64,000 bases of DNA from Salisapilia sapeloensis (Eukaryota; Oomycota; Peronosporomycetes; Peronosporales; Salisapiliaceae), in NCBI GenBank assembly GCA_023334545.1, contig JAADVB010000008.1, forward strand, positions 96,019 through 160,018. The letters are read 5' to 3'. A program made the position numbers and the translations under genes. Every line of letters begins with the position of its first letter. Position 1 is the first letter of the stretch. The notes beneath the pieces are model-generated. The model was not told the origin of the DNA, did not search any database, and saw only the letters and a list, made by a program, of their open reading frames with translations. This document shows positions 24,710-35,189 of this stretch, piece after piece.

Positions 24710-26413
24710 ATGAAGTCGAAAGTGAGCAAGAAGCGCACACCTGGAGTGTCGTCTACTACTCATAGTACAGAAATGTACGACTTCATGCGATCCACTACTA
24801 GTACGAACTTTAGCATCCAGTCTCCGGTCACGAATGGTAACGCAAATTCTTCCAACGTGATTATGTACGGGTCCCGTGAGAGTGCTCTTGTATCTCCTCA
24901 AACGATCACGACGAACTTCGTGCAGTCCACATCAGCCATGAAAACCCTTCGTCAGACATTTATAGATGGAAAGACACTACCATTGGAGCACAGGAAGAAA
25001 CTCCTTCGCAACCTTCAGATCATGGTCACGGAAGGACAGCGACAGCTCACAGATGCTATATGGCTCGATTTAAAACGCCATCCTGCAGAAACCTATAGCT
25101 TGGAACTTTCGGCTGTACATGCTGAGATCCAGCTTCACCTTGATCATTTGAACGAATGGGTCAAGCCGAAAGTGATTACGAACTATAACTTTACGACATG
25201 GCCGTCCCAGTCGTATATCGTCACTCAGCCGAGAGGTGTGATCTGTATCCTCGGTGCTTGGCACTTGCCGATCCGTATGATGCTACTGCCACTCATCGCT
25301 GCCTTGAGTGCTGGGAACTGTGCTCTACTCATCTTTTCCGGCGGAGATACTACTAAAAACACGAACGAGGCTCTTGCTTCTCTTCTAGAGCGCTACGTTG
25401 ACCAGCGCTACGTGCGACTTGTTGGAGGCGGTCGAGAGATGGCAACTCATGTGCTATTGCATGAACAGTTCGACCTTGTCTTTGCCTCTGGCGGGCCATT
25501 GATGGGTCGTGTAGTTGCAAGAGCTGCGTCCGAGTCATTGACACCAACGATCTTAGAACTTGGAGGGAAGAACCCAGCAATTGTGACGCATACTTGCAAT
25601 GTCCAAATGGCAGCAAAGAAGATTGCATGGGCATCTTTCTTAAATGCTGGCCAGACGAGTATGCGACCAGACTATGTGCTTGTCGATGCTCTAGTTGGTG
25701 ATAAGTTCACAAAGGCAGTGGAGTCCTGGGTCATGCATTTCTATGGTAGCGATCCGAAGTCGAGCGAAAGCTTTGGTCGACTCGTGAACAAGCGAGCATT
25801 CGACCGGATCGATTCCATCCTGAAGAGCGATCGGCGATGGATTACTTTCGGTGGATACAAGGACGCTCGAGACAAATTCATTTCGCCCACGTTACTACAC
25901 TTTGGTAAGAACCTTCCTGCGTTCGGTACGAGTTCCGCCATGGTTGACGAGATCTTTGGACCGATACTACCCATCGTCTACTACAATCAAGGACACATTG
26001 ACAGTGCCTTGATGTTCGTCTTGCAAAGAACTCGACCTTTAGCTCTATATCTCTTTACACAAGATGAATACGTTCGTCATCGAGTTGAGCAGCGGATGCA
26101 CTCTGGAAGCTTTGTGGTGAACGACTGCATGGCACATACCTTTCATCCGACGCTACCTGTTGGTGGCATTGGTGGCTCGGGTATGGGCAAGTATCAAGGC
26201 AAAGCTGGCTTTGACGCTTTCTCTCACCAGAAGAGTACGTTACGAAAGTCTGAATGGAATGATTTGGAGGCAAAGTATCCTCCGTACACAGACGCAAGTG
26301 AAAGCAAGTTGAAGAGAGCGATGCAACCGTCAAAGCGAACGCATCGAACGGTGGCTGTACTTGGCCTCGTTCTCTTTATCATCATTTTCTTGTTGATCTT
26401 ATCGACCATTTGA
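24710..26413 (+). CDS. ALDH3-like protein lacking catalytic Cys (probable pseudoenzyme)
   Basis: A 567-residue aldehyde dehydrogenase of the ALDH3/fatty aldehyde dehydrogenase type. The ATG at 24710 is preferred over an upstream TTG. A polar N-terminal extension of about 75 residues precedes the ALDH fold, and a C-terminal hydrophobic anchor (VAVLGLVLFIIIFLLILSTI) should tether it to a membrane, as in human ALDH3A2. The general-base Glu is present (E283 in LELGGKNP), and EIFGPILPIV and the C-terminal FSHQKS remain. However, the nucleophile position reads NAGQTSMRPDY, with Ser317 (codon AGT) instead of Cys, exactly 34 residues after the Glu as in ALDH3A1. GAWNYP is GAWHLP (Asn to His185), KPSE is IFSG, and FTGS is FASG. 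With the thiol, the oxyanion Asn and cofactor contacts altered, NAD-dependent oxidation is unlikely. The frame is long and intact, so a retained non-catalytic role is inferred. Confidence 0.9.
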   Translation: MKSKVSKKRTPGVSSTTHSTEMYDFMRSTTSTNFSIQSPVTNGNANSSNVIMYGSRESALVSPQTITTNFVQSTSAMKTLRQTFIDGKTLPLEHRKKLLRNLQIMVTEGQRQLTDAIWLDLKRHPAETYSLELSAVHAEIQLHLDHLNEWVKPKVITNYNFTTWPSQSYIVTQPRGVICILGAWHLPIRMMLLPLIAALSAGNCALLIFSGGDTTKNTNEALASLLERYVDQRYVRLVGGGREMATHVLLHEQFDLVFASGGPLMGRVVARAASESLTPTILELGGKNPAIVTHTCNVQMAAKKIAWASFLNAGQTSMRPDYVLVDALVGDKFTKAVESWVMHFYGSDPKSSESFGRLVNKRAFDRIDSILKSDRRWITFGGYKDARDKFISPTLLHFGKNLPAFGTSSAMVDEIFGPILPIVYYNQGHIDSALMFVLQRTRPLALYLFTQDEYVRHRVEQRMHSGSFVVNDCMAHTFHPTLPVGGIGGSGMGKYQGKAGFDAFSHQKSTLRKSEWNDLEAKYPPYTDASESKLKRAMQPSKRTHRTVAVLGLVLFIIIFLLILSTI

Positions 26414-26461: not shown

Positions 26462-27946
26462 TTAGTCTCGTAGCTGTCCGATCGGTTTTCCAAGCATTAA
26501 CTGTCATTCACATACCATTAGCTTTTCAATTAGCTTGCTAGTGTTTGTTAAAGTACCTTTTCTCCTGGTTGTGTCGTGAATTGGAAGTTTTTAGGTGCTT
26601 CGAAGACGAGGACGACGGTTGATCCGAGTCGGAACTGTGCCACTTCATCTCCTTTCCCTGTGTCCATCCCACTTCCGTACTCTTTAATGAAACACTTTTT
26701 GTCTTCCGCAGCTTGATCCTGCTCCTTGACATTCGTCAAAAAGTCTGGCTCAGCGGACAAGGTGATGGACCCGACGTTCGTGGCACCGACTGCAGACATA
26801 CTGAACATCCCGTGCTGCCACTTTCCCATCAACACCACTCGTTCGTTTTCGACGAATAAGCTCGGAATGAGCTTGGCTGCTCGAGAGTTGACTGGGAAGA
26901 GGTTACCAGGAAAATGGCGTCGTTCCATCACCTTCCAGTCGATCGGTGAGTGGATACGATGGTAGTCGCCAGGGGCCAAGTAGATGACACACTGGTACAA
27001 AACCTTGTTCGGGTCTTTCGACCGCCATGAAGGAAAGTCTCCAATAAAGTCATCCAGACGATAGCGAGCTCCTTTGATCTGCTCTAGAGTTGCAGTAGGT
27101 GTAGTTTCATCCACGATACCAAAGGATGTGATCACGCCGTCCACAGGAGACGTGAGGACGCGTGGGTTCATCTCGATTGGACGCACGTCGTCCTTTAGTG
27201 GACGAGAGAAGAACTCGGCTAGATTGCGGTACGATTCCAGCGGGTATCTACGCACTTGCGAGTTAAAAGGATAGACACAATGCCAATTAATAGGACGTAC
27301 TTTGCTTCATCGAGGTTACAGTCGTAGACGTAGGTCCAAGCCTTGTACACTGGAGCTCGAAGGAACGTCGGTCTACAAGTTACATATTAATTATTAGATC
27401 TATAGATGGATTGAAACATCTTACAGTTCCTTGTCGTGGACTTTGCCCCAGAGGCGAGAGATGGCTCGATAGGGAAGCAGTTTAATCGATTCCAGCTACC
27501 GCATGTGAGACATTGTGCTCTATGATAAATATGTGGAGAAAGGAGTACTTGTCTTTGGGTTGCCATGCCACTCTCGAATTCAGTTGGCGGTGTAGGAAGC
27601 CTCGTCACTGCCAGTGATGGACCTTCGCGACGGTCATCAGCGGCAATGCTTAGATGATACCATTGCAACGCTGCAATCAGTGCAAATCCACCTGCTGCCG
27701 GCACTTTCCAGCCCATTGGGTTACCCCACCCAGGCGGAACGTCATCCTTTGGGGCTTCATGTTTGGTCTTTTGCTTGCTAGAAAATGAGCGGACTCTGTA
27801 CGACGATCACATCGTGTAGGCGATTAGTTTAAAGATTTAATGTGTTGGAATGATAGATTGCGAATCGAGCATGTAGCATACCTTGATGAACGCGCTGAAA
27901 GTCTGAAAGCGAATCGTGGCGAGGCTCTCGAGGGTGCTGCCAACAT
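26462..27946 (-). CDS. PSD: Phosphatidylserine decarboxylase, mitochondrial type, 6 exons
   Basis: It converts phosphatidylserine to phosphatidylethanolamine at the inner mitochondrial membrane and uses a pyruvoyl group made by self-cleavage. Exons in transcription order are 27946-27882, 27795-27549, 27495-27425, 27372-27301, 27247-26557 and 26500-26462, joined at GT-AG introns of 51-86 nt, for 394 residues. The N-terminus (MLAAPSRASPRFAFRLSARSS) looks like a mitochondrial presequence, and WKVPAAGGFALIAALQWYHLS is a membrane anchor. Core motifs are LLPYRAISRLWGKVHDKELP, YRNLAEFFSRPLK, SPVDG, YLAPGDYHRIHSPIDW and the self-cleavage site LGST followed by VVLVFEAP. The small last exon supplies MLGKPIGQLRD, the expected C-terminus; reading through the last intron would stop two residues after the donor. 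Its ATG lies 289 bp from the divergent eIF3j gene. Confidence 0.93.
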
Positions 27947-28235: not shown

Positions 28236-29011
28236 ATGGACTCGTGGGGTATGTACACATATGCATAATGTTATTGTACGAGGAATCTTAAATTAAAATT
28301 GGTCTAGACGATGATGAATTTGAGGTGCCAACCATTAATGCGAACAACGCCACCAAGCTGAACTGGGACGATGAAGAAGAAGAGGAGGAAGCACCTGCCC
28401 CTGTCCAGGAGCCCACGCCGAGTGCACCCAAGGGTCCGCTCAAGCCCAAGCAGCTCAAGAAGCTAAAAATGAAGGAGCTCGAGGAAAAACGCGAGTTGGA
28501 AGTCAAGCTCGCCAAGGCTCGCTTGGAAGACCAGGCGAATGAGACGGAGGACCAGCGTAAAGCCCGTGAGAAGGCTGCGATGGAAGAGGCGGACTTTGAA
28601 GCTGCTGTCGATGCGTTTGCCAGTGTCCCTCTCAAATCGGCCAAGGCCAGTGGCGATGACAGCGTCGAGGGCAGTATCGAGAGCATGCGTCTCATGTCGC
28701 TAGCTGACCACGAGAAGCTCGGTGAAGCCGTCTCGAAGCGTCTAGCTGACTCGAACGCCAAGTACGCTTTGGAGTGCATTAAGGTCTTGTTGACGAAAGG
28801 CACACAGAGTCTCAGTGCCGACGACATGAAGGAGCTGACGACGATTTTGAACGTCGTGAAGAACGATAAAATCCAACGTGCTAAGCCCAAGACCAAGAAG
28901 AAGAAGCAGTCGGGTCGTCAAGGCTATGCGAATGTCGAACGCAGTGCTCCGACTCGAGGCGTCGGCGCGATGGACTATGACGAGTACGATGACTTTGATG
29001 ATTTCATGTAA
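28236..29011 (+). CDS. Translation initiation factor eIF3 subunit J
   Basis: eIF3j binds the 40S subunit near the decoding centre and helps eIF3 and mRNA loading. A 13-nt first exon (28236-28248, ATG GAC TCG TGG G) is joined across a 59-nt intron (28249-28307) to the main exon 28308-29011. This gives the family's typical start MDSWDDDEFEVP and 238 residues, close to human eIF3j (258). Acidic runs (LNWDDEEEEEEAP) are followed by a Lys/Glu coiled coil (KQLKKLKMKELEEKRELEVK, about 58-80). The conserved helical core contains VPLKSAK, MSLADHEKLGEAVSKRL and YALECIKVLLTKG. A basic tail, KPKTKKKKQSGRQG, ends in an acidic DYDEYDDFDDFM. It is transcribed away from PSD. Confidence 0.93.
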
Positions 29012-29053: not shown

Positions 29054-32000
29054 TTAGTAGTAATTATTTCGAATGAACTGGTCTGACGTCCGACGCTTTC
29101 GACTCACTTCATTCGCCACTTGGTGCGTCGCATACAGCGTCTGCAGAGCTTTCATGCGTTGGGCACTCAGGAAGAGCGGTCGACCTCGTCGAAGGTTAAT
29201 GTCCTCTTCTCCAAACTTATCAAGGTAAGGAGATCCAAAGTAAGAGCTGCGAGGACCGTAGACGAGTAGCACCGAGCTCACGCGCATGAGGAAGAACATG
29301 CCGACACCTGCGCCACATGTCAGCGCGTGGTAAGTGCATGCGCCCATACCATTCTGTCGTCGACAGCAGTCGCTGCCAGCGCACAGGACCTGTCCGCAGA
29401 CGAGGCAGATGGCTGGGTTCTCGACAATGTTCCACGTCTGTCGACACTTGCTCTTGCCTAAGATATCCGAATGCAAGTCCGTGTACAGACTAGCCAGCGA
29501 GACCAGCCGGACGCTAGTGAAAGCGTAGCGGAGGGTAGGATCGTCACTGTCGTTCGTCATGCTGTCGCCTCGCATACGACGTAGAGGTAGAGGCGGCATC
29601 ACTTTCCAGTTACATTCTAGCACCTCATTGTCTACAGTCGTCGTCTTCGCCATGGCCGTGAGCAACGCCTCAGCATCGCCCTTCTCTTCATACGACACTC
29701 TCGCCTGATCCTCCACGGCTGCTAGACGGTGTGTCCGTAGCTGAGACGCAGCCATCAAGAGGTAGTTTAGCATATCGGCGTTGGACAAGACTTGCTCCAC
29801 GGACGGCACACCTAGCTGCTCGGCCATGTCGTCGTACTTTGTCGTGAGTCTCAAGGACTGGACAAAGTTGGCACTCCACGATGCGTCAGGGTCCTGCTCT
29901 GCTCGGAAGCAGGCGCGACAGAGCAGCGTCATTTCCCGCATGAAGGCCAGACAGCTCGATTCGAACATGCACCGAAGCTGCTTTCCTCTCGGTGGCGTCC
30001 AGTCCTCTAGCTGTGTGCTGCCAACGAGCTTACGCATGAGTTCAAAGAGCGCCGAGTCGTCTTCTTCCTCTCCTTCCTCTTCCTCTGGTGGCGTCCGAGC
30101 GACCTGAAGTAGCGTCTGAGCCATGTGAAGCACACATAAAGAACGTAACGTCTGGAGCATATCTGCTTTCGCCGTGAGGACGGTACCGCAAAGGAGGACA
30201 GCAAGGTAGGTCAAGTCCATGCTGAGGAGAGGTGCGCTGACAGCCAGCGGTGCGCCTCTCTTAAGACTGTCTGCAAACGTCTTTTCATCCGACTGTAGTT
30301 GCAATGCGGAGACAAGAGGCGAGGCGACAGCTTCTTGGAACCCTTCCGAGTCGGAGAAGAGAAGAGGGAGCTGTCGTAACGCACGCAAGACGCAGCTGAG
30401 CTTTGCATCGTCTTTAGCAGACCCACCGTCCATCTGACTTTCCAACGCTTCTGGCAACTCGACGCCCAGTCGATTCTCCAAAGGAGGTGTGAGGGGGTTC
30501 AAGAGAGCAGAGATGTGGAGAGATGACATAGAAGTAGCTTTGTTTTCACTCAGAGCGCCCTCGAGAGATAGAAGAGCAGAGGAGATGCCGGCTAACTGTG
30601 TCGACTTGACTGTTTCGCTCACACAGTTCCAGACGACGTGCATGAGCTGCGCTTCCGACCCTCGGAAACTTTCATGCATCCTTCGGACGGCGTGTCTCGC
30701 TGCCGTCGGAGTCATGAGGTTTGGTCGGAAGCGAATGTAAGCGTCCAATACAGAAGTCGCAAACTGTACGACCGGTTTCTTCTCTCCATTCACATTCAGA
30801 TTGCTCATCTTTTGTGGTAGTTCGTCTTGTAACCACGACAATATCCTCGTCGCATCCTGTTTCGTAGCAAAGACATCTTCCAATGCACTTCGATTCGCAT
30901 TCCGTTCGTCGTATGTTAGTGCTGAGCTCGTCGGGACGTGCGGCACGAGGACAGAGCTTAGTGCTTGACACAAAGGACACAAAAACTCTTCAAAGTGTGC
31001 GTCAAAAGCGACGTTCAGCTGCGCCTGTTCCATCTGCGCTCGAGGTTGCGACCGGACGGACGCAAAGTATGTCTTCCAGCAGGACAAGTGGACGGCATGG
31101 CCACACATGGACAAGACGGTGGGTGGAGGGAATGGAATGTCAGACGGTTCTTCCACCACTTTTTGGAAGACGTGTGTGCGCGTGAGAGACTGCTGCGCAT
31201 GACCTATGTACATGACGGCTTCATCGCGTTTCTTCTGAGCGCAGATGATGCAGTCCGGTGGTGGAGGAGGTCGGTAGACGACACCATCAGCGTCTTCTTC
31301 CATGTCCTCCTCCTCTTCCTCCATGTCCTCGAACGACGTGGCCATGGAAAACGCTTGCTGGCGCATCGACATGGCTTTCAACGCTCGTTCCTGCGCTTTC
31401 TTCCGACGTTCATCCTTGCTCTCGACCGTCGACTCTTGTGTATTGGACGCATTCAAATGCGTGTGAAGATAGGAAGCAACGGACGGATGTTCATTAAGCG
31501 ACTGGAGAAGCCAGTAGATGGCTGCAACAGTGCTCTTCGATGCCTCGAACTCCTCTTCTAACTGCTTGACGTATTGTACGAGCAAACCGATGATGGACTG
31601 ATCTGCAACATGGAGCTCATGACCTTCAGAAGGAGCACTTGTCTTGGCTCTTTTAGCACAACGACTCTCATCTGGTTCTTCAAACGCCTCCTTTCCTGAT
31701 GCCATGTACTCGATCACGTGAGACACAGAAGAGCTCAAGACCGTCACGTGGAGCAAGTGGACGACGGCGTTGGCGACACCTGCACTATTGTCCATGGCTC
31801 TTTCTAGCACGAGACGGAGGACACCGATTAATCCTTTATCACTTGCCAAGTCTCGGACGGACGTAAAGGCAGGATGGACAGGAGGGAGTGTCGAAATAGA
31901 TGGCACAGGTGCATGGCCGACGCGCCAATTCTTCAGCAAAGCTTCCTGTCGATTCGTCTGTGCTTTCTCATGCTCCGATCGACTGAGATGGAAGTAGTTC

Positions 32001-34708
32001 GGATCATACTCTGTATACCTGTCACCACGTAGGACGTATTTCGTCGGTTCCGAGCTTTCGTCCGTACTGTGTGGACTCTTGGCGTCTGCAACGTCTTGTA
32101 GTATCGATTCTAAACGTTCTAAATGCTTCGTATCACTTGTGCGACTACCGGATGCACCAAACGCTTTGGACGTGATGAAGGTCGTTTGATCAAGTAGTTT
32201 CGAAATACGTTGTGGACGATGCGATAGACGATGCACGACTTCTCGACGCAAGACACAGTCCTCGTTCTGGACGTTCGTGAGAGGGGGCGGGAGGTCGGTG
32301 AGGATCCAGCAGAGTGTTGTCAAGGCATGCTCTAACGTCGCACTCATCTTCTCGTCCGTACGTGCTGGGCGTGATGGAGAGAGGTAGTCAGACAGTCCGA
32401 AACGATCAAAGAACGTCGAAAGGAAGGTACAAGGACGAAGGATAGAAGCGACGACTTGCGTGATGAACAGATCCAAGTCTCTCAAATCAGCGCACCATGG
32501 AGGAGTGACATAGTTCATCGTCTGTCGAGCTAGCGTCTGTCCGTTGCGTATCCACAATCCGCTCTGGACATGGACACTGAGAGCAAGGGAACGGAGGGGG
32601 AACTCTAGTAAACCTAGGATCAGCAATCTCTTTCGCGAATCGTCCATGATCTCTCGTCGACGGAAGGACGTGACACCACTCGCTCCTTTTCCTACTTGAC
32701 CCATGGACGTTAAGAACGTCTCTTTCCAATTGATAATCGGATCGTCCTGGATGTCGTACATGGCCTCCATCAAGTAGGATGCTAGTTGAGTGTGCATTGG
32801 ATAGTGGTACGAGACAGGTTGGGATAAGACGTCGTACTTGACGATGAACAAGTCACGCTGCGAGTGCGACAGGAGACTGATGGGCGGAGCCTGCATCTGC
32901 ATTGCGCCATCAGCCACACCAGACAGTTCCAACTGGTCCCAAAAGCATAGCAAAACGTTCATCACCATTTCCATCCGTTCCTCGTCGCTAGGAAGAGAAT
33001 GTCGTAGAGACCTCGACACGATCGACAGGAGACGACTGACGCAACCATGGAAAGTAAATGCTGTCACCCACTGCCGAGACTCGTACGTCACGTGTGCTCG
33101 GCCTTCCTGCACACGTGTTTGAGGATCCATGCCCTGCATAAATCTCAACGCTTTCATCCACTTGGACAAAAGTTTGGTGTCTAGTAAGAGCTTTCGCGCC
33201 ATTTCTGGAACGTTTAGGACGTAGCCCAAGTTATCAGTTAAAAAGGAATATCGATGGAACTTTAAGAGCATGCGAGAACAGTCTAACATGACTTCTGGAG
33301 TCCATGAATGAGGAGATGCGACGCTGTTGGGTGCCAACGTACGTCCGGTGATCGGACATGCGCTCGTGGGAGACTGGGCGAGGTCGATGGCTGTGTGGAA
33401 GGTATCGAGGAGCGTGTCCAAGAGTCCGAGTGTCGACAGGTGCTGGACAATGGAAGGCGTTGTGAAGATCTGGACGCCGTATTGGAAGAGACTTTCGTCC
33501 ATGGTCCCAACGCCGCAAAAGTATTTGCTCATGAGACGATCGTAGACGTCGTAGAAGGCAATAGAGAATTGGAGCTTGGGTTCCTTTTCAGCCTGCAGCT
33601 TTAAGTAGAGTTGATACAGCTCTTGTACGAGAGGTTTAATGAGGAACGCGTCGGCTAGGAACATGACTTGCAGCGGTTCTTTCGGGCGAGAAGCGGCGTT
33701 CGAAGCGTCGAAGAGTTTAGCACAAAAGCGATGCAAGAGCTCTGAAGATAGACTACATACACGTCGCGTCCATTGAACGGCGCTTAGTGCGACTTGTTCT
33801 TTCCACAAATGATTATCGTCCACGACACAAATGAGCCACTCTTCCTCCTTTAGCTCTTTCATAAACGTCAGAGCCGATCGGAGTGACATGTTCCGAGCAA
33901 CAAGGTCACTTCCGTTCGCGTCGATACTACGCACAAGCTCTTTCGCTGATCCGACGCCTCGTTGGGTTAGCGAAAGGATCAGATCTTCGTCCGAATGCAC
34001 GTCATCGTTGCAGATACGAATGTGATAGCCGCTATTCAACAAAGTTCCGTTTCCTTCTCGATGTGCTCTCGACTGTGCTTTCGTCGCAACTTCCTCCGGA
34101 TCGAATATGGCCGTGGAGCTCTTGGCCATTTCGACCAACCACTTGACAATTTGTTCAAAGATCGTATCTGCTGCAAGTGCAAACTCTCGCGGAAGTGTCT
34201 CTGCTGTCGTATCTACATCTTCTACAGGTAATTCGCCATGGTCTTTACAAAATCCACTCGGGGCCCACGCTTCACTATCGCCACAGTCACAGACGCCACC
34301 AGGCATCGTCCGGTGAAAAAAGATCTCATGGCCTTCATGATTCCCATTCTGATAGCACTTGATACACAACACACACGTTTCATCTACTTGGCACGTCTTG
34401 CAATTGAATGCAATGTCGTTGCGTTGGAACATGTAGCCACAGAGCGGCTTGCGAGTGGACGATGCACTCGTCTGGCGTTCCAAGTACGCCTCGACACTTT
34501 CATCTCTATTATTCGATGCGTGGGCTAGCAAGGCAGTGTCCAATACGTCTCGGATCGTGGTTTCTTTATCCTCGGAAGGTAGCAACCTCGACGCATTCTG
34601 TAGCTCGTGAAAGAGTTTCGGGATTCCCGTCGAGACACACGAGTCGAATGACGTAGATAGCAAGTAGTTTCGTACGGCGTCCACTGACGTCAATCGCGGA
34701 CGGTCCAT
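29054..34708 (-). CDS. UBR-type E3 ubiquitin ligase (N-recognin)
   Basis: A large single-exon E3 ligase of 1884 residues. It is annotated from ATG 34708 (MDRPRLTSVDAVRN); the open frame extends further only through a non-ATG start. A complete UBR box near the N-terminus (about residues 95-165) has the Cys/His zinc ligands in CGYMFQRNDIAFNCKTC, CVLCIKCYQNGNHEGHEIFFH and GGVCDCGDSEAW. This box recognises N-degrons with basic or bulky N-termini. About two thirds along is a RING-type finger: DCIICAQKKRDE, a 50-residue loop, SMCGHAVHLSCWKTYF, then FLCPLCQALSSVLVP. The C-terminus carries the UBR autoinhibitory/cap segment with Cys-rich CLVCGQVLC, CCRR and ACTYHALTCGAG. The size and order match UBR1/UBR2-like ligases, and the RING plus UBR box implies N-degron proteolysis. 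A low-complexity acidic patch (EDMEEEEEDMEEDADG) precedes the RING. Confidence 0.93.
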   Translation of the reverse strand: MDRPRLTSVDAVRNYLLSTSFDSCVSTGIPKLFHELQNASRLLPSEDKETTIRDVLDTALLAHASNNRDESVEAYLERQTSASSTRKPLCGYMFQRNDIAFNCKTCQVDETCVLCIKCYQNGNHEGHEIFFHRTMPGGVCDCGDSEAWAPSGFCKDHGELPVEDVDTTAETLPREFALAADTIFEQIVKWLVEMAKSSTAIFDPEEVATKAQSRAHREGNGTLLNSGYHIRICNDDVHSDEDLILSLTQRGVGSAKELVRSIDANGSDLVARNMSLRSALTFMKELKEEEWLICVVDDNHLWKEQVALSAVQWTRRVCSLSSELLHRFCAKLFDASNAASRPKEPLQVMFLADAFLIKPLVQELYQLYLKLQAEKEPKLQFSIAFYDVYDRLMSKYFCGVGTMDESLFQYGVQIFTTPSIVQHLSTLGLLDTLLDTFHTAIDLAQSPTSACPITGRTLAPNSVASPHSWTPEVMLDCSRMLLKFHRYSFLTDNLGYVLNVPEMARKLLLDTKLLSKWMKALRFMQGMDPQTRVQEGRAHVTYESRQWVTAFTFHGCVSRLLSIVSRSLRHSLPSDEERMEMVMNVLLCFWDQLELSGVADGAMQMQAPPISLLSHSQRDLFIVKYDVLSQPVSYHYPMHTQLASYLMEAMYDIQDDPIINWKETFLTSMGQVGKGASGVTSFRRREIMDDSRKRLLILGLLEFPLRSLALSVHVQSGLWIRNGQTLARQTMNYVTPPWCADLRDLDLFITQVVASILRPCTFLSTFFDRFGLSDYLSPSRPARTDEKMSATLEHALTTLCWILTDLPPPLTNVQNEDCVLRREVVHRLSHRPQRISKLLDQTTFITSKAFGASGSRTSDTKHLERLESILQDVADAKSPHSTDESSEPTKYVLRGDRYTEYDPNYFHLSRSEHEKAQTNRQEALLKNWRVGHAPVPSISTLPPVHPAFTSVRDLASDKGLIGVLRLVLERAMDNSAGVANAVVHLLHVTVLSSSVSHVIEYMASGKEAFEEPDESRCAKRAKTSAPSEGHELHVADQSIIGLLVQYVKQLEEEFEASKSTVAAIYWLLQSLNEHPSVASYLHTHLNASNTQESTVESKDERRKKAQERALKAMSMRQQAFSMATSFEDMEEEEEDMEEDADGVVYRPPPPPDCIICAQKKRDEAVMYIGHAQQSLTRTHVFQKVVEEPSDIPFPPPTVLSMCGHAVHLSCWKTYFASVRSQPRAQMEQAQLNVAFDAHFEEFLCPLCQALSSVLVPHVPTSSALTYDERNANRSALEDVFATKQDATRILSWLQDELPQKMSNLNVNGEKKPVVQFATSVLDAYIRFRPNLMTPTAARHAVRRMHESFRGSEAQLMHVVWNCVSETVKSTQLAGISSALLSLEGALSENKATSMSSLHISALLNPLTPPLENRLGVELPEALESQMDGGSAKDDAKLSCVLRALRQLPLLFSDSEGFQEAVASPLVSALQLQSDEKTFADSLKRGAPLAVSAPLLSMDLTYLAVLLCGTVLTAKADMLQTLRSLCVLHMAQTLLQVARTPPEEEEGEEEDDSALFELMRKLVGSTQLEDWTPPRGKQLRCMFESSCLAFMREMTLLCRACFRAEQDPDASWSANFVQSLRLTTKYDDMAEQLGVPSVEQVLSNADMLNYLLMAASQLRTHRLAAVEDQARVSYEEKGDAEALLTAMAKTTTVDNEVLECNWKVMPPLPLRRMRGDSMTNDSDDPTLRYAFTSVRLVSLASLYTDLHSDILGKSKCRQTWNIVENPAICLVCGQVLCAGSDCCRRQNGMGACTYHALTCGAGVGMFFLMRVSSVLLVYGPRSSYFGSPYLDKFGEEDINLRRGRPLFLSAQRMKALQTLYATHQVANEVSRKRRTSDQFIRNNYY

Positions 34709-35189
34709 GGAGAAGATGGCAAGTCGACGCTCCGTTTCTTTGCCCACTTGGCGTGAAATGATAGTGTCTGGGACGTTGTATATTATTTTTCTCAACTTGC
34801 ACTTCTCGTGGCAGCATACTTTCTTCCAGTCAAACGGATGTCAAGGCAAGGATAAATTGCTGGTCTCGGTCGAAAAATACGAAAATATCAGGATCCGCTT
34901 GACTAGCTTTTGTATGTTTACCATGAAGGTCGTAACATTCCCATTCTTCTCTATGCATCTGGAAGTGAAGATATACCTCTATACACTGCTTCGACGTGCT
35001 CTTGATCGTAATGTATCGAGCATCCTGATCAATGGTCTCAACTGTGATTAGCTGAAATGCTGCATTAACGACCAATCGCAGCACTCTTCCTACACCTTCC
35101 GTTTTCAGTCCGATTGCTACGGTGCTTTATTCATCCTCGCTACGTCCTATCTCTAGCCTCGCCATTGTATATTCACTACACTTGTCAAG
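34709..35189. promoter_or_regulatory. Divergent promoter region of UBR ligase and TAF2
   Basis: This 481-bp region separates the divergent UBR-ligase and TAF2 start codons. Short ORFs occur but look non-coding. It must contain both promoters. No element is assigned. Confidence 0.4.

What the first reader, a model, noticed from the sequence alone, without database searches (positions are those of the whole stretch)
24710..26413. Membrane-anchored ALDH3 homologue with Ser in place of the catalytic Cys
Seen directly: NAGQTSMRPDY where active ALDH3 enzymes have Cys at the Ser317 position, GAWHLP instead of GAWNYP, IFSG instead of KPSE, and FASG instead of FTGS. The general-base Glu (E283), EIFGP and the C-terminal TM anchor are kept. 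Spacing from Glu to the substituted residue (34) matches ALDH3A1. A long intact frame with several catalytic or cofactor positions changed suggests a retained pseudoenzyme, not simple decay. It could act as a structural partner, lipid or aldehyde binder, or membrane tether.
Basis: partly seen in the sequence, partly recalled or inferred. Interest (0 to 1): 0.75.

Follow-up and report, generated by a model that had tools for sequence, protein, structure and literature searches.

The report
Aldehyde dehydrogenase with rewritten active site
A water-mould gene encodes a well-preserved, membrane-anchored aldehyde dehydrogenase whose catalytic pocket has been rewritten, including loss of the cysteine that does the chemistry, so it probably no longer oxidises aldehydes and may do something else.

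Summary
The frame 24710-26413 is intact and encodes a class-3 (ALDH3/FALDH-type) aldehyde dehydrogenase with a C-terminal membrane anchor; the start is more likely Met52 (24863). Ser317 replaces the catalytic Cys of 203 of 204 relatives, and His185 replaces the oxyanion-hole Asn of 204 of 204. The KPSE and FTGS differences are mostly lineage-wide or misaligned, although Lys/Arg208 (204 of 204) is Ile here.

Of 76 near-invariant family columns the protein departs at 6 of 7 that map to the catalytic/substrate pocket but at 1 of 69 elsewhere; none of the other 204 sequences departs at three or more pocket columns. This argues against read error and random decay, and for a constrained fold whose pocket was released or remodelled. 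An Achlya relative has Gly at the same site.

Best reading: a retained ALDH3 pseudoenzyme (0.6); its role is inferred only. The bold alternative is a Ser317/His185/Glu283 hydrolase-like site (0.08). Pseudo-ALDHs are known (ALDH16A1), so this is a new variant of a known kind. Activity, expression and dN/dS could not be tested.

The parts
24710..26413 (+). Open frame of 567 codons, ALDH3-type aldehyde dehydrogenase homologue (stop codon included)
24863..26413 (+). Likelier coding sequence, from Met52 (516 aa)
   Evidence: Inference: shared MYGS with P0003, length of relatives, low model confidence before it
25262..25264 (+). His185 codon CAC, in place of the oxyanion-hole Asn (ALDH2 Asn169, ALDH3A1 Asn114)
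   Evidence: Asn in 204 of 204 relatives; codon
25265..25267 (+). Leu186 codon, substrate-tunnel position (ALDH2 Phe170, ALDH3A1 Tyr115)
   Evidence: Tyr in 203 of 204; tunnel role from PMC9781114 passage
25277..25279 (+). Met190 codon, substrate-tunnel position (ALDH2 Met174); conservative, varies in some relatives
25331..25333 (+). Ile208 codon, in place of the cofactor-binding Lys/Arg (ALDH2 Lys192)
   Evidence: Lys 195 and Arg 9 of 204; NAD role of Lys192 from PMC8160307 passage
25487..25489 (+). Ser260 codon, in place of Thr (ALDH2 Thr244)
   Evidence: Thr in 204 of 204
25556..25558 (+). Glu283 codon, general base kept (ALDH2 Glu268)
   Evidence: Glu in 204 of 204
25658..25660 (+). Ser317 codon AGT, in place of the catalytic Cys (ALDH2 Cys302, ALDH3A1 Cys243)
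   Evidence: Cys in 203 of 204, Gly in P0005
25949..25951 (+). Glu414 codon of EIFGP, kept (ALDH2 Glu399)
   Evidence: Glu in 204 of 204
26159..26161 (+). Val484 codon, substrate-tunnel position (ALDH2 Phe465)
   Evidence: near-invariant Phe in relatives; tunnel role from PMC9781114 passage
26336..26407 (+). Predicted C-terminal membrane-anchor helix, residues 543-566

Best explanation
A retained ALDH3-type pseudoenzyme: a tail-anchored class-3 aldehyde dehydrogenase fold that cannot do thiol-based, NAD-dependent aldehyde oxidation, because the nucleophile (Cys to Ser317) and the oxyanion-hole Asn (to His185) are both replaced and a cofactor contact is lost (Lys/Arg208 to Ile). It most likely acts through the fold at a membrane: as a non-catalytic dimer partner of one of the two ALDH3-type paralogues of the same genome, or as a binder of long-chain aldehydes or lipids in a pocket widened by Tyr186 to Leu and Phe484 to Val; present evidence does not choose between these. 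Shown: the substitutions, the intact frame, the predicted fold and anchor, the concentration of changes in the pocket. Inferred: loss of activity, continued selection, membrane location, partnership, ligand binding.
Against: The end branch is long, 1.37 changes per column against 0.42-1.05 for the seven other oomycete-clade rows, and GC3 is below that of the paralogues (0.69, 0.735): compatible with relaxed selection. Three of the seven pocket columns (186, 190, 484) also vary in some Cys-bearing relatives. The pocket list was found after the departures were seen. No activity, expression, dN/dS or second species with Ser.
Confidence: 0.6

Rival explanations
1. Recently dead gene: selection was lost lately and the pocket changes are early lesions of a still open frame.
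For: Long end branch, GC3 lower than in the paralogues, intact paralogues that could cover the function.
Against: Only 1 of 69 non-pocket near-invariant columns is changed, bounding unconstrained change at about 7% per site; at that level three or more of four core columns change with probability about 0.001. No stop or frameshift.
Confidence: 0.15
2. New chemistry: Ser317, His185 and Glu283 form a hydrolase-like site (esterase or thioesterase) in the old aldehyde pocket, with no need of NAD.
For: Ser, His and kept Glu stand at three positions that line the bottom of the ALDH tunnel; Asn to His is not seen in 204 relatives; ALDHs have esterase activity with the same residues and no added cofactor (PMC8160307 passage); the cofactor Lys is lost and the pocket lost two aromatic residues.
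Against: No coordinates, so no distances; no relative with the same triplet; each change is also what a released pocket would show.
Confidence: 0.08
3. Still a slow aldehyde dehydrogenase or esterase using Ser317 as a weak nucleophile in the old mechanism.
For: Glu283, Glu414 and the rest of the fold are kept.
Against: The oxyanion-hole Asn and the cofactor Lys/Arg are lost as well, which such an enzyme should keep.
Confidence: 0.07
4. Assembly or read error at the Ser codon.
For: Reads were not available, so an error at one codon cannot be excluded.
Against: Six pocket codons at separate places are changed, the frame is intact, and no second version of the locus is in the assembly.
Confidence: 0.03

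Closest known systems
Fatty aldehyde dehydrogenase FALDH/ALDH3A2 (4qgk) and ALDH3A1 (3sza, 1ad3)
   Same: Class-3 ALDH fold over the whole domain; Glu, EIFGP kept; C-terminal helix and anchor as described for FALDH (PMC8160307 passage).
   Different: Catalytic Cys and oxyanion Asn replaced by Ser and His; cofactor Lys and two aromatic tunnel residues lost.
ALDH16A1, the human ALDH pseudoenzyme
   Same: An ALDH-family protein without the catalytic Cys, proposed to act by binding (PMC8160307 and PMC10650815 passages).
   Different: ALDH16A1 lacks the whole triad; this one keeps the Glu, is of the ALDH3 class, has a single domain and a C-terminal anchor.
P0005, Achlya hypogyna ALDH3-type protein
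   Same: Same oomycete clade; catalytic Cys also lost.
   Different: Gly, not Ser; Asn kept; 2 of 7 pocket columns changed, not 6.
P0002, Lagenidium giganteum N0F65_006708
   Different: Keeps all 7 pocket columns, Cys and Asn included; 46% identical over the core.

Membership tests
ALDH superfamily | Aldedh domain (PF00171) above the curated cut-off | tested here: met
   189.8 bits against 23
Class-3 ALDH (ALDH3/FALDH) | Closest in sequence and fold to class-3 enzymes | tested here: met
Class-3 ALDH (ALDH3/FALDH) | Catalytic Cys | tested here: not met
   Ser317; Cys in 203 of 204 relatives
Class-3 ALDH (ALDH3/FALDH) | Oxyanion-hole Asn | tested here: not met
   His185; Asn in 204 of 204
Class-3 ALDH (ALDH3/FALDH) | General-base Glu and EIFGP Glu | tested here: met
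   Glu283 and Glu414
Class-3 ALDH (ALDH3/FALDH) | Cofactor-binding Lys (ALDH2 Lys192) | tested here: not met
   Ile208; Lys or Arg in 204 of 204
FALDH-like, membrane-bound | C-terminal hydrophobic anchor | tested here: met
   Predicted only: helix 543-566, hydropathy 3.12
Class-3 ALDH (ALDH3/FALDH) | NAD(P)-dependent aldehyde oxidation | not testable with these tools
   Needs purified protein
ALDH16A1-type pseudoenzyme | Loss of all three catalytic residues | tested here: not met
   Glu283 kept; definition from PMC10650815 passages
Ser-His-acid hydrolase (works like) | Ser, His and acid in hydrogen-bond geometry, with hydrolytic activity | not testable with these tools

The most novel reading that the evidence does not exclude
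An aldehyde dehydrogenase fold turned into a membrane-anchored hydrolase: the nucleophile and oxyanion positions became Ser317 and His185, Glu283 stayed, and the pocket was widened (Tyr to Leu, Phe to Val), giving a Ser-His-Glu site for acyl substrates with no need of NAD.
Probability: 0.08. Interest if true: 0.8.

Novelty: new variant of a known kind. Interest (0 to 1): 0.45.

Why it matters
The reviews seen name one human ALDH pseudoenzyme, ALDH16A1. A tail-anchored ALDH3 in which almost only the pocket has been rewritten, in a genome with two Cys-bearing paralogues, is a clean case for asking what a dead fatty-aldehyde dehydrogenase does at a membrane. A second Cys loss in an Achlya protein suggests that oomycete ALDH3 proteins lose catalysis more than once. 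If Ser317, His185 and Glu283 proved catalytic, it would be a new chemistry in a very large enzyme superfamily.

Tried and rejected
Rejected: 'FTGS to FASG' and 'KPSE to IFSG' as clear lesions; mostly alignment or lineage effects. Rejected: a one-codon read error as the sole cause (six pocket codons). Considered and not used: staphylococcal AldH 6k0z/6k10, whose deposited sequence also reads NAGQTS; I believe (recalled) that it is an engineered inactive variant, but the review passages seen do not say so.

Not possible: fixation of Ser across species, dN/dS, expression, distances in the model. Led nowhere: NCBIfam gave only distant ALDH models well under their cut-offs; repeats in the gene showed one weak 20-base pair only; the first, 13-sequence model was replaced by the 99-sequence one. 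Literature: searches for ALDH pseudoenzymes, oomycete ALDH3 and Cys-to-Ser ALDHs listed nothing on this kind of protein in oomycetes, in an open-licence library only.

Database coverage: the search with a neighbouring gene lists many named oomycetes, Phytophthora, Pythium, Peronospora, Saprolegnia and Aphanomyces among them, while the two ALDH3 searches list named oomycete hits only from Lagenidium giganteum, Aphanomyces stellatus and Achlya hypogyna. As only the 7992 candidates sharing most words were scored and 120 were listed, this suggests a patchy family but does not prove it.

Full report

Start. Of residues 14-57, all but 15 and 39-41 are occupied in at most 11 of 203 relatives; the model is under pLDDT 50 over 1-4, 6-20 and 29-57; relative P0003 begins with the same MYGS; and a start at Met52 gives 516 aa against 507-518 aa in P0002-P0006. 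I take 24863 as the likelier start (inference).

The substitutions. I aligned the protein with 204 others: all 202 proteins listed by the two ALDH homologue searches and the two ALDH3-type paralogues of the same genome, C434 and C55. At 317 the relatives have Cys in 203 and Gly in 1; here Ser. At 185 they have Asn in 204; here His. At 260, Thr in 204; here Ser. At 208, Lys in 195 and Arg in 9; here Ile. Glu283 and Glu414 are kept (all). Cys, Glu and Asn are named as the catalytic triad of ALDHs (PMC10650815 passages), so two of three are gone; Lys192 and Glu399 of ALDH2 are named as NAD contacts (PMC8160307 passage), so one of those two is gone.

Is it more than chance. I took the 76 columns in which at least 98% of 203 rows agree (the query and the Gly-bearing P0005 left out of this definition), and marked the seven that map to ligand contacts of human ALDH2: Asn169, Phe170, Met174, Thr244, Glu268, Cys302, Phe465 (Table 3 of PMC11112092, passage; four of them also in a passage of PMC10650273). 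The numbering was counted by eye on the ALDH2 alignment, the match to this protein by the shared motifs. The query departs at 6 of these 7 and at 1 of the 69 others (Arg304 to Lys). The other 204 rows depart at 7 of 1428 pocket cells and 71 of 14076 other cells, and none departs at three or more pocket columns. The hypergeometric chance of such a concentration is 2.2e-7. Against it: I found the contact list after seeing the departures; columns 186, 190 and 484 vary in some Cys-bearing relatives (C434 2 of 7, P0006 2 of 7, P0009 1 of 7), so the firm core is 185, 260 and 317 of four columns, against 1 of 816 cells in the others; and the reference rows are mostly bacterial.

Decay or retention. 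With one change in 69 non-pocket near-invariant columns, unconstrained change is at most about 7% per site (95% Poisson bound), under which three or more of four core columns would change with probability about 0.001. The end branch is 1.37 changes per column against 0.42-1.05 for the other seven rows of the oomycete clade (28 rows chosen from the 205; two rows outside the clade have 1.25 and 1.33). So most of the divergence seems to have happened under constraint on the fold. The long branch, and GC3 of 0.515 against 0.69 and 0.735 in the paralogues, are compatible with some relaxation; GC3 lies inside the 0.42-0.72 of the 12 other frames of 300 aa or more in the window, and the upstream intergenic stretch has 0.395 GC. 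dN/dS was not possible: the nearest rows are 46% identical over the core.

Where it sits. A neighbouring aminopeptidase frame (864-2438, -) is 68% identical to a Lagenidium giganteum protein, 69% to one of [Pythium] brassicae and 70% to one of Phytophthora sojae, so the contig is from an oomycete; its genome is held as 19.5 Mb in 452 contigs. In the tree the query pairs with Cys-bearing P0003 (94/87, just under the program's mark), while the Gly-bearing Achlya protein falls with two Cys-bearing Aphanomyces proteins (96/91). This suggests two separate losses of the nucleophile; I made no formal test of it. Next to the gene lie frames for a phosphatidylserine decarboxylase (26548-27255, -), an eIF3 subunit (28325-29011, +) and a UBR-type ligase (29054-34795, -).

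How it most likely works. I commit to a retained pseudoenzyme (0.6). Fold and anchor suggest a place on a membrane. FALDH is described as dimeric (PMC8160307 passage), and the genome has two paralogues that keep Cys, Asn and Glu (C55 with all 76 columns kept, C434 with four departures): a non-catalytic partner is plausible. The loss of two aromatic tunnel residues makes a lipid or aldehyde binder plausible. A pocket freed from catalytic constraint would look alike in both. The boldest reading not excluded is a Ser317-His185-Glu283 hydrolase site (0.08): the three positions lie at or near the bottom of the ALDH tunnel (passages), and ALDHs already show esterase activity with these residues, but no distance could be measured.

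Novelty. ALDH pseudoenzymes are known: ALDH16A1 lacks the triad and is proposed to act by binding (passages). Ten searches of an open-licence library (listings, apart from the passages cited) listed no paper that I recognised as about an oomycete or ALDH3-class pseudoenzyme; subscription papers were not searched. I rate it a new variant of a known kind, of moderate interest because the central claim, loss of activity with a kept function, rests on sequence alone.

Noticed in passing
P0005 (Achlya hypogyna), column of window:25658-25660: A second oomycete ALDH3-type protein has lost the catalytic Cys, to Gly (NAGQTGIRPDY), with Asn and Glu kept.
   Followed up: partly
L010 (G000 contig 434), paralogue frame: This ALDH3-type paralogue keeps Cys, Asn and Glu but reads NAGQICMCPDY and WNCP, with Tyr186 and Trp307 equivalents changed to Cys and Met.
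   Followed up: no
ALDH3 family in oomycetes: Named oomycete hits of the ALDH3 searches came only from Lagenidium, Aphanomyces stellatus and Achlya, though many other oomycetes are in the database: possibly a patchy family.
   Followed up: partly
window:26548-27255 (-): Phosphatidylserine decarboxylase frame ends about 130 bases from the end of the ALDH3 gene, in convergent orientation; whether the pair is conserved elsewhere was not tested.
   Followed up: no
window:22130-22903 (-): A 257-aa frame with the N-terminal part of a cation P-type ATPase only; the rest may lie in further exons or be missing.
   Followed up: no
window:16757-18073 (+): Intact 438-aa frame without any Pfam match at E 0.001.
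   Followed up: no
PDB 6k0z/6k10 (staphylococcal AldH): The deposited sequence also reads NAGQTS at the catalytic site; probably engineered (recalled, not verified).
   Followed up: partly
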